A DNA stretch of 22,811 bases from Eudoraea sp. (GTDB lineage Bacteria > Bacteroidota > Bacteroidia > Flavobacteriales > Flavobacteriaceae), in assembly GCA_013042125.1 (NCBI GenBank), contig JABDQS010000171.1, forward strand, positions 1 through 22,811, read 5' to 3'. This document shows, piece by piece, positions 3,047-15,600 of this stretch (positions are counted from its first letter, which is position 1; every line of letters begins with the position of its first letter). A program made the position numbers and the translations under genes. Below the pieces are notes generated by a model. That model worked only from the letters and a program-made list of their open reading frames with translations, did not search any database and was not told the origin of the DNA.

Positions 3047-3089
3047 CATATTTAATTTCTACATAATCAAGGAAACATGATTTTTATCA
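3047..3089 (-). promoter_or_regulatory. Predicted korAB promoter with FNR-like box (shared with the ferredoxin promoter)
   Basis: Read on the minus strand, the palindrome TGATAAAAATCA (3089-3078) is followed after exactly 23 bp by TAAATATG (3054-3047), one mismatch from TAnnTTTG. The same box and spacing serve the opposite strand. No -33 TTTG is seen at the usual distance. The leader to the preferred korA ATG would be about 50 nt. The -7 match is the weakest of the five promoters of this type. Confidence 0.5.
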
Positions 3090-3120
3090 TTAATTACCTA
3101 CTACCTGAATAGTACTTTTA
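3078..3120 (+). promoter_or_regulatory. Predicted ferredoxin-gene promoter with FNR-like box
   Basis: ATGAT-TTTT-ATCAT (core 3078-3089) is a perfect inverted repeat that resembles the FNR consensus TTGAT-N4-ATCAA. Exactly 23 bp downstream lies TACTTTTA (3113-3120), a 7/8 match to the Bacteroidetes -7 element TAnnTTTG. The box centre is 33 bp from the -7 centre, i.e. near -41, the class-II activator position. No -33 TTTG is visible. The 5' leader would be about 25 nt. Confidence 0.68.
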
Positions 3121-3147
3121 CGCTAATAATTTTTCAAATTAGAAATT

Positions 3148-3498
3148 ATGGCTATCATAATTACAGATGAATGTATTAACTGTGACGCTTGTATCTCCGA
3201 ATGTCCTAACAATGCGATCTATGAACCAGATCAGGAATGGTCTTATTCAGATGAAACTGCTCTAAGTGGAATGATAAAGACTCCGGGTGGCGATGAAATG
3301 GATGCAGATGCAGAGAATGAACCTATCTCAGATGAGTTTTACTTCATTGTTCCGGACTAATGTACTGAATGTATAGGATTTCATGACGAACCACATTGTG
3401 CTTCTGTTTGTCCTGTGGACTGTTGTGTTCCCGATGAGGATCATGTGGAATCTGAAGAACAGCTACTTAGCAAGAAGGCCTGGATGCACGGTGAATGA
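3148..3498 (+). pseudogene. 2[4Fe-4S] ferredoxin interrupted by an in-frame TAA
   Basis: The frame starts at ATG 3148 and encodes a bacterial-type ferredoxin with the first cluster motif [12 protein letters not shown] (C9, C12, C15, C19) and a family-typical acidic insert ending in [11 protein letters not shown] at 3358-3360 then stops it after 70 residues. Reading straight on in the same frame gives the missing second half: CTEC, FHDEPHC, CASVCPVDCCVPDEDHVE, ending at TGA 3496-3498. The total of 116 codons fits the family length. In relatives I recall a lysine at the stop position, so a single AAA to TAA change would explain it. The 70-residue product would lack the second cluster and the distal cysteine needed to complete the first, so it should not work as a 2[4Fe-4S] carrier. 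Promoter and terminator look intact. A fresh nonsense mutation, a base-call error or readthrough are the options. The intact protein would be an obvious electron acceptor for KorAB and NifJ. Confidence 0.88.
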
Positions 3499-3576
3499 GA
3501 ATTTGGAGTTACGATAATGACTTGCAGAATTTGAGTACATATTCGGTAGTTCTGTTCCATTATTCAATTTGAAATT

Positions 3577-3615
3577 ACCACCCTTTATTTGTTGTAAATA
3601 AAGGGTGGTTTTTTT
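3577..3615 (+). terminator. Strong rho-independent terminator after the ferredoxin gene
   Basis: A perfect 14-bp stem (ACCACCCTTTATTT at 3577-3590 pairing with AAATAAAGGGTGGT at 3596-3609) with loop GTTGT is followed by a run of T. It lies about 80 bp after the ferredoxin TGA and isolates that unit from nifJ. Confidence 0.92.
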
Positions 3616-3717
3616 GTACAAAAAAGTACCTGATCATTTTTTTATTTGATGGCAGCAGAAAAACTTTTGTTAATGTTTTATGGATGAAGAACTATCTACT
3701 GTTCTGTAGTTAGGAAC

Positions 3718-3760
3718 TGATAAATGTCATAGTTTAGCCTCTATAGGAATGCTACTTTTA
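3718..3760 (+). promoter_or_regulatory. Predicted nifJ promoter with FNR-like box
   Basis: TGATAAATGTCA (3718-3729) is an imperfect inverted repeat of the FNR type. It lies exactly 23 bp upstream of TACTTTTA (3753-3760), a 7/8 match to TAnnTTTG. No -33 TTTG is present at normal spacing. The 19 bases AACTGATAAATGTCATAGT around the box are identical to those ahead of the TonB gene at 15555-15573. Confidence 0.72.
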
Positions 3761-13249: not shown

Positions 13250-13310
13250 GATCCCTGCAAGAAAGGCATTTACTTTTGTGGTTTATAAGTGTTGTGTTGG
13301 TTCTTTAACC

Positions 13311-13353
13311 TGATAAAAATCATAGTATTTCAGTGCTAAGAGCAATACTTTTG
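13311..13353 (+). promoter_or_regulatory. Predicted doxX-operon promoter with FNR-like box
   Basis: TGATAAAAATCA (13311-13322) is a perfect TGAT-N4-ATCA palindrome. The 13-mer TGATAAAAATCAT also occurs ahead of korA. Exactly 23 bp downstream is TACTTTTG (13346-13353), a full match to TAnnTTTG. No -33 TTTG is visible between. The predicted leader to the DoxX ATG is about 75 nt. Confidence 0.75.
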
Positions 13354-13431
13354 AGCGTTTTCAAAATTACTTCTATCAACTACTCCTAAGCGTTGTTGAA
13401 GGCATATCTATGAACTTAAAATTATAAAATA

Positions 13432-13926
13432 ATGACTGGGACACTTCAAAATGAATCGCTCACCAAGAGTTTGGTGTTTTTACGGATCCTGATAGGATGG
13501 CATTTCCTTTACGAAGGAGTGATTAAACTTTTTAATCCGGACTGGACAGCATTTGCCTATCTAGCTACAGCTCAGGGACCTTTTGATTGGCTGTTCATCT
13601 CCCTCACAAATGAAGCAGTGATTGGGTGGGTAGATACCCTGAATATGATTGCGCTTATTTTCGTTGGAATAACGCTCATCATGGGGTTTTATGAAAAATT
13701 GGGTGCATTGGCCGGCATAGTGCTATTGGGCATGTATTATTTTGCACATCCTCCATTTCCCTGGTTAGAGCAAGTTAATGTTGAAGGAAGTTATTGGTTT
13801 GTAAATAAGAACCTGATTGAAATAGCCGCATTATGGGTTCTATATCAATTTCCCACAGGATTTTATTTTGGTTTGGGTTATTTAAAAAGTCAAAGAATAA
13901 ACACTGCAAAAACACCACAATTATGA
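13432..13926 (+). CDS. DoxX-family inner-membrane protein
   Basis: This 164-aa protein has about four hydrophobic segments, beginning with SLVFLRILIGWHFLYEGVIK, the usual first helix of DoxX proteins (R..lG..f..eG..K). Another starts at MIALIFVGITLIMG. DoxX proteins are small quinone/redox-associated membrane proteins; one is the large subunit of an archaeal thiosulfate:quinone oxidoreductase. Its TGA stop overlaps the ATG of the next gene (ATGA at 13923-13926), so the two are translationally coupled. The pair suggests a membrane partner, perhaps an electron-transfer anchor, for the exported oxidoreductase. It sits behind an FNR-like box. The precise reaction is unknown. Confidence 0.88.
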   Translation: MTGTLQNESLTKSLVFLRILIGWHFLYEGVIKLFNPDWTAFAYLATAQGPFDWLFISLTNEAVIGWVDTLNMIALIFVGITLIMGFYEKLGALAGIVLLGMYYFAHPPFPWLEQVNVEGSYWFVNKNLIEIAALWVLYQFPTGFYFGLGYLKSQRINTAKTPQL

Positions 13927-15506
13927 AATGGACAAGACGTGATGTATTAAAAGGTTTAGGTGGTTTACCCATTTTAGGATCTATCTGGTGGGCTGGAACT
14001 GCAAATGCATTGGTAAAAAGCAAAGACCGCTCTGAGATATTAGAACAATTAAAAATTCAACCCTCTTTAACCTCTGCACTTCCAGAGATAGGAGGAGCAC
14101 CAATTCGTATAGGAATCATAGGGTTTGGTATCAGGGGAGAACAACTTTGCAGGGCCTTGGGATTTGCAACACAGGACTGGTTAGAAGAGATGAAATTAGA
14201 GGAGGAACTTACCGGGAACACCCAATTGCAGGAATTTCTTGATCAGGAGAAATTAAATATTCAAATGAGCGCGGTCTGTGATGTCTTTGATGTAAAAGCC
14301 GAACATGTCATCGCTTCATTTTCTACACCAGAACATACCGTGAAACGATTTACTACCTATCAGGAAATGATACATAGTGGTGAGGTAGATGCCGTTATTA
14401 TTGCTACACCAGATCACTGGCATGCACCAATGGCAATAGAAGCACTTAACAATAATGTTCATGTGTATGTTGAAAAACCTATGACCCATACCATTGAGGA
14501 AACCTACCAACTTCAGGAAGCGGCTGAAAATTCAGAGGCACTGCTTATGGTAGGTCATCAACACAGGCAAACCCTGAGCTTTAAAACAGCTAGTGATATT
14601 GTTGAAAAGGGCGTTTTGGGCCACGTGTCCATGATACAGACGTTCACCAACAGGAACGATGATAATGGTGCATGGAATTATGATATCCACGAAAAAGCAA
14701 ATGAACAGACCATAGATTGGGACCTCTTTTTGGGAAGTGCCCCGAAGATCCCATTTAATAAAAACCATTTCTTCCGTTGGCGTAAATGGTGGGCGTATGG
14801 TTCCGGTTTATCTGGTGATCTGCTCACTCATGATTATGATCGATTAAATTGTGTATTGGGAATGGGAATACCATCTAGTATTACAGCTTCCGGTGGTATC
14901 TATACCCATAATGATGGTAGAAATGTACCGGATGTGCTGCAGGTAAATATGGAATTCCCTGATTTTAGTACTGGAAGTAGTCAGCCAAAAGGGAAGGAAA
15001 AAGGAATGACCTTTACCTATAGTGCAACTCTTGGAAATGGGTTTAACAGGCCCACAATTTTGATGGGCCATGATGCGTCCATGGAATTGGGGAACAATCT
15101 TACCGTATGGCCGGATGGTGGTTCTACGAAGTACGCAGCCATGCTAGAGGAGGAAAAAATGAAACCTAATGTACCGATCTATCATTATAATCCCGGAGCA
15201 AATATGCCAGATGCGGTTTCTTCTGCCACTTCTCAATACTTTGCAGATAAAGGGCTTATGTGGACCTATATAGATGGTGTTCGGGTTAATTCTACTTTCC
15301 TACATTTAAGGGAATGGTTAAGTGGTATACGCAACGGAGGCACTATGAGTTGTGGAATTAAAGAAGGTTTTGAAGAGGCTATTTCTGCGCATATGACCGG
15401 TTTGGCTTACAAACTTGGCAGGAGGATAGATTGGGATCATAAACAGCAACAAATTGTACCTATAGAAGGCATCAATTTTGATGAGGTACTATTATCTTCT
15501 ACCTGA
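13923..15506 (+). CDS. Tat-exported Gfo/Idh/MocA-family oxidoreductase
   Basis: This 527-aa protein starts at the ATG that overlaps the DoxX stop; an upstream in-frame ATG at 13833 lies inside doxX and is rejected. The N-terminus MKWTRRDVLKGLGGLP is a textbook twin-arginine signal followed by ILGSIWWAGTANAL. The NAD(P) Rossmann fold reads IRIGIIGFGIRG (61-72). It is followed by ATPDHWHAPMA (161-171) and VEKPMTH (183-189), the EKP motif of the family. Members act on sugars, inositols and related polyols, often with tightly bound NAD(P); Tat-exported ones are frequent in Bacteroidota. Coupling to DoxX suggests that a periplasmic enzyme hands electrons to a membrane component. Substrate unknown; no glycoside genes nearby give a hint. 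Confidence 0.92.
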   Translation: MKWTRRDVLKGLGGLPILGSIWWAGTANALVKSKDRSEILEQLKIQPSLTSALPEIGGAPIRIGIIGFGIRGEQLCRALGFATQDWLEEMKLEEELTGNTQLQEFLDQEKLNIQMSAVCDVFDVKAEHVIASFSTPEHTVKRFTTYQEMIHSGEVDAVIIATPDHWHAPMAIEALNNNVHVYVEKPMTHTIEETYQLQEAAENSEALLMVGHQHRQTLSFKTASDIVEKGVLGHVSMIQTFTNRNDDNGAWNYDIHEKANEQTIDWDLFLGSAPKIPFNKNHFFRWRKWWAYGSGLSGDLLTHDYDRLNCVLGMGIPSSITASGGIYTHNDGRNVPDVLQVNMEFPDFSTGSSQPKGKEKGMTFTYSATLGNGFNRPTILMGHDASMELGNNLTVWPDGGSTKYAAMLEEEKMKPNVPIYHYNPGANMPDAVSSATSQYFADKGLMWTYIDGVRVNSTFLHLREWLSGIRNGGTMSCGIKEGFEEAISAHMTGLAYKLGRRIDWDHKQQQIVPIEGINFDEVLLSST

Positions 15507-15557
15507 TATTTGTATGTAAAGTTCCACTAGGCTACTTACAATCAGGCATTTAAAAAC

Positions 15558-15600
15558 TGATAAATGTCATAGTAATTCTTTCGTATTGGTTTTAAATTTC
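15558..15600 (+). promoter_or_regulatory. Predicted tonB promoter with FNR-like box
   Basis: TGATAAATGTCA (15558-15569) is identical to the nifJ box, and the surrounding 19 bases match exactly. TAAATTTC (15593-15600) lies 23 bp downstream, a 7/8 match to TAnnTTTG. No proper -33 element is seen. The leader to the TonB ATG would be only about 15-20 nt. Confidence 0.68.

What the first reader, a model, noticed from the sequence alone, without database searches (positions are those of the whole stretch)
3047..15600. One operator-promoter architecture at five promoters: FNR-like box, exactly 23 bp, then a TAnnTTTG-type -7 element
Boxes at 3078-3089, 3718-3729, 13311-13322 and 15558-15569 (consensus [AC]TGAT-N4-[AG]TCAT) are each followed after exactly 23 bp by a -7-like octamer: TACTTTTA 3113, TACTTTTA 3753, TACTTTTG 13346, TAAATTTC 15593. 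On the minus strand, TAAATATG at 3054-3047 has the same 23-bp spacing from the first box. Box centre to -7 centre is 33 bp in every case, putting the box near -41, the class-II Crp/Fnr activator position. The usual -33 TTTG is missing at all of them. Identical geometry five times in intergenic DNA is unlikely by chance. It defines a candidate low-oxygen or redox regulon: korAB, ferredoxin, nifJ, doxX-oxidoreductase, tonB. The palindrome resembles FNR sites (established); regulator identity and signal are inference.
Basis: partly seen in the sequence, partly recalled or inferred. Interest (0 to 1): 0.88.

Follow-up and report, generated by a model that had tools for sequence, protein, structure and literature searches.

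The report
Flavobacterial FNR-type low-oxygen promoter switch
A short mirror-image DNA site placed exactly 23 letters before the promoter marks a set of mostly low-oxygen genes in many flavobacteria and related bacteria, and it points to a little-studied protein as their likely oxygen-sensing switch.

Summary
All four TGAT-N4-RTCA boxes in the window carry TAnnTTT exactly 23 bp downstream; the first also faces korA. In the host genome 13 of 29 box/-7 pairs sit at 23 bp, against at most 2 at any other spacing. A one-mismatch scan gives 28 hits versus 2 for the reversed control. 295 class genomes hold 1573 composites versus 209 reversed controls. In 80 named, mostly Flavobacteriaceae loci 146 fall at 23 bp, versus a mean of 2.5 at 30 other spacings.

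Sites precede ccoN, ccoI, the nos operon, a HemN-like gene, usp, HPF, Hsp20, korAB, ferredoxin and nifJ: a low-oxygen regulon. A published flavobacterial start map puts TAnnTTTG at -12 to -5 (PMC9723704, passages), so the box centre is -41.5, class II.

The best regulator candidate is a Crp/Fnr protein beside ccoI. Cys5, 8, 54 and 107 are each kept in 110-114 of 115 close homologues; FNR's third N-terminal cysteine is absent. The operator is AAAnMTGAYAWWTRTCAKnTTT, and one palindrome often faces two divergent promoters. Regulator identity, cluster and signal remain inference.

The parts
3078..3089 (.). FNR-type palindromic box (TGATTTTTATCA) shared by divergent korA (-) and ferredoxin (+) promoters
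   Evidence: kept in 7 of 7 same-genus relatives that have KorA
3113..3120 (+). -7 element TACTTTTA of the ferredoxin promoter, 23 bp after the box
   Evidence: exact TAnnTTT in 5 of 7 relatives, 1 mismatch in 2
3047..3054 (-). -7 element TAAATATG of the korA promoter, 23 bp from the same box; TAAATTTG in 5 of 7 relatives, TATATTTA in 2
1139..2992 (-). KorA-type subunit (POR, POR_N domains); likely start ATG 2992, not 3049
127..1137 (-). KorB-type subunit (TPP_enzyme_C), next gene downstream of korA
3148..3498 (+). ferredoxin gene (named from its cysteine pattern, no Pfam run); in-frame stop in this assembly, frame intact in 7 of 7 same-genus relatives
3718..3729 (.). FNR-type box TGATAAATGTCA of the nifJ promoter
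   Evidence: mean pairwise identity 0.98 in 8 genomes
3753..3760 (+). -7 element TACTTTTA of the nifJ promoter (identical in 8 of 8 genomes)
3878..7411 (+). NifJ-type pyruvate:ferredoxin/flavodoxin oxidoreductase
13311..13322 (.). FNR-type box TGATAAAAATCA of the doxX promoter
13346..13353 (+). -7 element TACTTTTG of the doxX promoter (TAnnTTT in 9 of 9 genomes)
13432..13926 (+). DoxX-family membrane protein
13833..15506 (+). GFO/IDH/MocA-family oxidoreductase ORF, overlapping the end of doxX
15558..15569 (.). FNR-type box TGATAAATGTCA of the tonB promoter
   Evidence: kept in 9 of 9 genomes
15593..15600 (+). -7 element TAAATTTC of the tonB promoter; weak (one mismatch to TAnnTTT in 8 of 8 relatives)
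15621..16343 (+). TonB C-terminal domain protein

Best explanation
The boxes are operators of an FNR-type (Crp/Fnr family) transcription activator, placed at -41.5 of sigma-A promoters of the Bacteroidota type. The dimer binds AAAnMTGAYAWWTRTCAKnTTT. Its downstream arm covers the -33 region, and RNA polymerase engages TAnnTTTR exactly 23 bp from the TGA..TCA core; this is the class-II geometry recalled for E. coli FNR (12-bp core, 23 bp, then -12). Because the palindrome is symmetric, one operator can face two divergent promoters (korA and ferredoxin here; ccoI and the regulator gene elsewhere). The likely regulator is the 229-aa protein at G000 C28:7980-8666, next to ccoI and usp, probably with an oxygen- or redox-labile Fe-S cluster held by Cys5, 8, 54 and 107. 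It would switch on high-affinity respiration, N2O respiration, oxygen-independent heme synthesis, ferredoxin-dependent 2-oxoacid oxidoreductases and stress or dormancy proteins when oxygen falls. Shown: sequence architecture, enrichment, conservation, downstream genes, conserved residues. Inferred: binding by this protein, activation, Fe-S cluster, oxygen signal.
For: Exact spacing: host genome 13 of 29 and 3 of 5 at 23 bp; 28 versus 2 control with at most one mismatch; 146 at 23 bp versus mean 2.5 and maximum 10 at 30 other spacings in 80 named loci; 1573 versus 209 in 295 class genomes, with five or more composites in 124 versus 4 genomes. Footprint in 8-9 same-genus genomes: boxes 0.89-0.98 and -7 elements 0.75-1.00 mean pairwise identity, spacers 0.43-0.69 in sequence but constant in length, with the orthologous ferredoxin, nifJ, doxX and tonB following the box in 7, 7, 8 and 8 relatives. 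Function: with at most one mismatch in the -7, ccoN 72 of 73, ccoI 72 of 77, usp 34 of 35, the regulator's own gene 34 of 80 (exact TAnnTTT: 71, 1, 36 and 27 boxes); host-genome targets HemN-like, NosZ, Rrf2, HPF, YtxH, Hsp20, Usp, biotin carrier. Regulator: one of two Crp/Fnr HTH proteins over the Pfam cut-off in the host genome; best NCBIfam model is Fnr, below its cut-off; aligned to FNR structures with recognition-helix E192 in 115 of 115 and R196 in 111 of 115; Cys5 114, Cys8 110, Cys54 113, Cys107 114 of 115. Copies of the regulator family correlate with site excess (Spearman 0.57, 295 genomes). Published: oxygen limitation strongly up-regulates cbb3 oxidase and heme-synthesis genes in F. 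psychrophilum, and TAnnTTTG is at -12 to -5 (PMC9723704, passages).
Against: No transcription start, binding or expression data for this organism. The MAG is 74% complete, so another Crp/Fnr gene may be missing from it. The 80 named loci were the best hits to the regulator and are related, so counts there are not independent, and the 115 sequences of the cysteine count are the closest homologues only. The copy-number correlation ignores relatedness and genome size, and the 53 genomes without a regulator hit still average 1.5 composites versus 0.68 control. Two of three other family genomes tallied show no clear spike (G296 4 of 59, G306 2 of 23; G297 15 of 62). FNR's third N-terminal cysteine is not kept (position 14 is N or S in 108 of 115). 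At ccoI the -7 almost never has the first T (CA 37, GA 18, AA 17, TA 1 of 77 boxes), so that promoter departs from the consensus. Only 27 of 78 boxes facing the regulator gene have an exact -7. The korA site was not seen in 5 of 5 order-level KorA loci. tonB's -7 is imperfect in 8 of 8 relatives. With one mismatch allowed, spacings 15-17 and 22 also rise (36-58 sides versus 237 at 23).
Confidence: 0.8

Rival explanations
1. The sites are class-II operators, but they are bound by a different Crp/Fnr protein (the second one at C127, P0002, or one missing from the 74% complete MAG).
For: P0002 is a Crp/Fnr HTH protein in the same genome; many class genomes have several homologues, and site number rises with copy number, so paralogues may share sites.
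Against: P0002's best NCBIfam model is CRP and, in its translation, my reading of the recognition helix has V where FNR has the conserved E. The C28 protein lies between ccoI and usp, both carrying the site, and 34 of 80 relatives have the site (at most one mismatch) before the regulator's own gene.
Confidence: 0.12
2. The regulator works through the site but senses something other than oxygen (NO, heme redox state, carbon status), as reported for the Crp/Fnr proteins HcpR and PgRsp of Porphyromonas, or as suggested by the MalR assignment of flavobacterial homologues.
For: PgRsp and HcpR bind heme (PMC12040651 and PMC6955866, passages). Flavobacteriales homologues in a reactor were assigned to MalR and carbon sensing (PMC8510549, abstract and passages).
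Against: The targets are oxygen-limitation genes (ccoNO, ccoI, HemN-like, nosZ). Four nearly invariant cysteines suit an Fe-S cluster. Oxygen limitation induces cbb3 and heme genes in F. psychrophilum (passage).
Confidence: 0.2
3. The sites repress rather than activate; the palindrome over -41 blocks a constitutive promoter.
For: No expression data exist for this genome; Crp/Fnr proteins can repress (recalled).
Against: The strict 23-bp spacing at 146 sites and the lack of a conserved TTG at -33 beyond the operator's own T-tract are expected of contact-dependent class-II activation. Repression does not need a fixed spacing.
Confidence: 0.06
4. Chance or compositional artefact of AT-rich intergenic DNA.
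For: AT-rich intergenic DNA is rich in TAnnTTT, and spacings 15-17 and 22 have raised counts when one mismatch is allowed.
Against: Reversed-pattern, other-spacing and Markov controls and conservation across genomes.
Confidence: 0.01

Closest known systems
E. coli FNR class-II promoters (site centred at -41.5; recalled)
   Same: TGA-N6-TCA core, AAA/TTT arms (FNR consensus recalled), 12-bp core then 23 bp to -12, oxygen-limitation targets
   Different: the outer T of TTGAT is replaced by A or C (T in 2% of 146 sites); the -10 is the Bacteroidota TAnnTTTR element; the regulator lacks FNR's third N-terminal Cys and has Ile where FNR has Ser212
FixK/FnrL/Anr regulons of proteobacteria (cco, hemN, nos, usp targets; recalled)
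   Same: similar physiological target set and a Crp/Fnr regulator next to cco genes
   Different: different phylum, promoter type and operator outer base; cysteine pattern C-x2-C...C...C
Flavobacterial sigma-A promoters (TAnnTTTG at -12 to -5, PMC9723704, passages)
   Same: same -7 element
   Different: the operator's palindrome arm supplies a T-tract at -33 to -30 in place of a separate -33 element
Porphyromonas HcpR, PgRsp and CrpPg (2GAU)
   Same: Crp/Fnr family in the same phylum; 2GAU is the best PDB sequence match
   Different: HcpR and PgRsp bind heme (passages); no such operator/-7 architecture appeared in the passages seen

Membership tests
Class-II Crp/Fnr-dependent promoter | activator site centred at about -41.5 | tested here: inconclusive
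   fixed 23-bp spacing plus published -12 to -5 position of TAnnTTTG in F. psychrophilum give -41.5; no start mapped in this organism
Class-II Crp/Fnr-dependent promoter | spacing to the -10 (-7) element fixed across the regulon | tested here: met
   146 at 23 bp versus mean 2.5 at 30 other spacings in 80 loci
Class-II Crp/Fnr-dependent promoter | transcription depends on the activator | not testable with these tools
   needs genetics
FNR (oxygen-sensing [4Fe-4S] protein) | Crp/Fnr HTH (PF13545) and FNR-like recognition helix E..R | tested here: met
   PF13545 over cut-off; E192 115 of 115, R196 111 of 115
FNR (oxygen-sensing [4Fe-4S] protein) | Ser212 contacting the outer T of TTGAT (recalled) | tested here: not met
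   Ile at the aligned position in 115 of 115; the operator accordingly has A/C there
FNR (oxygen-sensing [4Fe-4S] protein) | four cluster cysteines C20, C23, C29, C122 (recalled) | tested here: not met
   equivalents of C20, C23 and C122 kept; the C29 position is N or S in 108 of 115; Cys54 kept in 113 of 115 instead
FNR (oxygen-sensing [4Fe-4S] protein) | NCBIfam Fnr model above its cut-off | tested here: not met
   105.5 bits versus cut-off 228, though it is the best model
FNR (oxygen-sensing [4Fe-4S] protein) | oxygen-labile Fe-S cluster controls DNA binding | not testable with these tools
   biochemistry needed
FNR/FixK-type regulon | sites before cbb3 oxidase, hemN, denitrification and usp genes | tested here: met
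   (HemN is my reading of a radical-SAM hit)

The most novel reading that the evidence does not exclude
Much of class Bacteroidia uses a separate branch of Fe-S oxygen sensor, with cysteines at 5, 8, 54 and 107 instead of FNR's set and its own operator code (MTGAY instead of TTGAT, matched by Ile instead of Ser212). It drives a class-wide low-oxygen regulon from strictly spaced class-II promoters, and single palindromes act as two-way switches for divergent operons.
Probability: 0.5. Interest if true: 0.78.

Novelty: new variant of a known kind. Interest (0 to 1): 0.68.

Why it matters
How Bacteroidota sense falling oxygen seems poorly described: in ten paper searches I saw no listed title or abstract opening on this operator or regulon, and one study of Flavobacteriales Crp/Fnr homologues used the MalR motif (PMC8510549, passages). 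Here a precise operator, a fixed promoter geometry, a target list and one candidate regulator can be tested directly in genetically tractable Flavobacterium. The target set covers N2O reduction and high-affinity respiration in abundant marine and soil bacteria. The two-way operators pose a concrete question about how one dimer serves two polymerases.

Tried and rejected
Rejected: the ATG at 3049 as korA start (it overlaps the -7; homologues align later). Rejected: chance. Withdrawn on checking: my first reading that ccoI keeps CAnnTTTG; one search shows CA, GA or AA in 72 of 77. Considered and not run: structure prediction of the regulator, because the tool's description offers no coordinates for measuring cysteine distances; a 22- or 24-bp spacing control over the whole class, because other-spacing controls existed in the host genome and named loci. 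The family spacing listing was cut off; besides the host genome only three complete listings of 12 were tallied (G296, G297, G306), and two of the three show no clear excess. Matsui et al. 2013 on Crp/Fnr motifs was not held, so prior description of this motif there cannot be excluded.

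
Full report
Observation. The window contains four TGAY-N4-RTCA boxes, and all four have TAnnTTT exactly 23 bp downstream; the first also has TAAATATG 23 bp away on the minus strand. By resampling of the window (300 first-order Markov copies) the expected number of such composites is 0.003.

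Host genome. G000 is a 2.24-Mb, 344-contig, 74% complete MAG; the nearest named regulator homologues are from Muriicola. Scanning for TGAT-N4-RTCA followed by 10-40 bp and TAnnTTT gave 29 pairs, of which 13 are at 23 bp and no other spacing has more than 2; the TGAC form gave 5 pairs, 3 at 23 bp. With one mismatch allowed in the full pattern there are 28 hits against 2 for the reversed pattern. They lie on 24 palindromes, 4 of which are hit in both directions; in one of the four (C176) the second direction has no ORF following it. Twenty-seven of 28 are not inside an ATG-started ORF of 120 aa or more, and 27 of 28 have an ORF of at least 45 aa starting within about 260 bp, one of these being the site inside a 498-aa ORF.

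Targets. In the window: korAB, ferredoxin, nifJ, doxX plus an oxidoreductase ORF, tonB. Elsewhere in the genome: ccoN and ccoI (Pfam run on the Muriicola marianensis orthologues; the host copies recognised by sequence likeness), four Usp genes (Pfam run on one and on an orthologue of another), a radical-SAM protein that I read as HemN, a small lipoprotein with a CxxCH motif ahead of NosZ, Rrf2, HPF, YtxH, Hsp20, a uridine-kinase-family gene opposite a biotin-carrier operon, a membrane-fusion protein, a TPR protein, and several proteins of unknown function. Three one-mismatch hits look spurious or doubtful: C32 (mismatch in the box), C18 (inside an ORF) and C176 + (no ORF).

Conservation. Eight other same-genus genomes were among the 25 relatives searched. 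In the 7 with KorA, the korA and nifJ boxes with TAnnTTT at 23 bp are kept in 7 of 7; the ferredoxin box is kept in 7, with an exact -7 in 5 and one mismatch in 2. In the 8 with the oxidoreductase, the doxX site is kept in 8 and the tonB box in 8, with one mismatch in the tonB -7 in all 8. The orthologous ferredoxin, nifJ, doxX and tonB follow in 7, 7, 8 and 8. Mean pairwise identity is 0.89-0.98 for boxes and 0.75-1.00 for -7 elements, against 0.37-0.73 for the 30 bp before and 0.42-0.59 for the 30 bp after; the 0.73 is the stretch before the ferredoxin box, which is also the korA promoter, and it nearly equals the ferredoxin -7 (0.75). Spacers are 0.43-0.69 identical but constant in length. 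Outside the genus, the three KorA loci from the family (G297 twice, G301) have a site just before korA; the five order-level loci have none within the stretches held.

Class-wide. In 295 genomes drawn from the class, own genome included, 263 have at least one composite; the total is 1573 against 209 for the reversed pattern, and 124 against 4 genomes have five or more. In 80 named loci around the regulator, 146 composites are at 23 bp, while 30 other spacings average 2.5 with a maximum of 10. Their logo is AAAnMTGAYAWWTRTCAKnTTTT with TAnnTTTR. With TA at -12 and -11, the box spans -47 to -36, its centre is -41.5 and the right-arm T-tract lies at -33 to -30. The position of the -7 element comes from the F. 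psychrophilum start-site map (-12 to -5; PMC9723704, passages only). Two of three other family genomes tallied individually show no clear spike (G296 4 of 59, G306 2 of 23; G297 15 of 62), so regulon size or motif varies.

Two-way operators. In the 80 named loci (253 boxes), 45 palindromes have a -7 element (at most one mismatch) at 23 bp on both sides, against 0 to 2 at each of 16 other distances. The recurrent case is the gap between the regulator and ccoI: 76 boxes face both genes. There the ccoI side shows CA, GA or AA in place of the first TA in 72 of 77 boxes, with TTT kept, and TA in only 1; the regulator side has an exact -7 in 27 of 78. So this shared operator is universal in position but its -7 elements are not all consensus.

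Regulator. The host genome has two Crp/Fnr HTH proteins over the Pfam cut-off and five weak hits below it. The one at C28 lies between usp and ccoI, with ccoN further along the contig; usp, ccoI (one mismatch) and ccoN all carry the site. In the 80 named relatives the site (at most one mismatch) precedes ccoN in 72 of 73, ccoI in 72 of 77, usp in 34 of 35 and the regulator itself in 34 of 80. These loci were selected for the regulator and are related, so this is one conserved locus rather than 80 independent tests. Regulator-family copy number correlates with site excess over 295 genomes (Spearman 0.57), not corrected for relatedness or genome size; the 53 genomes without a hit still average 1.5 versus 0.68 control. 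The protein resembles FNR. Across 115 sequences (the closest homologues, own included), Cys5, 8, 54 and 107 are present in 114, 110, 113 and 114; recognition-helix Glu and Arg in 115 and 111; and Ile replaces FNR's Ser212 in 115. The operator's outer base changes in parallel from FNR's T to A or C. I read this as a matched change of specificity.

Mechanism. The most likely reading is an Fe-S-containing FNR-type activator at class-II promoters that turns on microaerobic and anaerobic functions. Independent support is that oxygen limitation strongly raises cbb3 oxidase, and also heme-synthesis genes, in F. psychrophilum (PMC9723704, passage), and the architecture is present at ccoN in Flavobacterium stagni. 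I could not test F. psychrophilum itself.

Literature. Ten searches listed no paper whose title or abstract opening describes this operator or regulon in Bacteroidota. Of the papers, I saw passages of PMC9723704, PMC12040651 and PMC6955866, and abstract, outline and passages of PMC8510549; the rest only as listings. The library lacks most subscription papers and Matsui et al. 2013, so absence from print is not established.

Verdict. The finding is genuine and larger than claimed; it is a variant of a known kind (FNR-type class-II control) in a phylum with its own promoter code.

Noticed in passing
window 3148-3498 (+): The ferredoxin gene has an in-frame stop between its two cysteine clusters; the frame is intact in 7 of 7 same-genus relatives, so this may be an assembly error or a recent inactivation.
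   Followed up: partly
window 19780-21012 (-): HD domain plus PycTM (Pycsar effector transmembrane) protein, possibly an anti-phage effector.
   Followed up: no
window 17419-19791 (+): 790-aa protein with no Pfam match at E 0.001.
   Followed up: no
window 13432-13926 and 13833-15506 (+): The doxX ORF and the following oxidoreductase ORF overlap by 94 bp in different frames; the true start of the second is uncertain.
   Followed up: no
window 7486-7863 (+): Small HEPN-domain protein near the Pfam threshold after nifJ.
   Followed up: no
named loci L177-L256, between regulator and ccoI: At ccoI the first T of the -7 is almost always replaced (CA 37, GA 18, AA 17, TA 1 of 77 boxes) while TTT is kept: a conserved departure from the -7 consensus at an otherwise standard site.
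   Followed up: partly
L063 4258-4689 (-) and 4745 (+): An Rrf2-family regulator and the nosZ operon are divergent and share one palindrome, suggesting a second input to N2O reduction.
   Followed up: no
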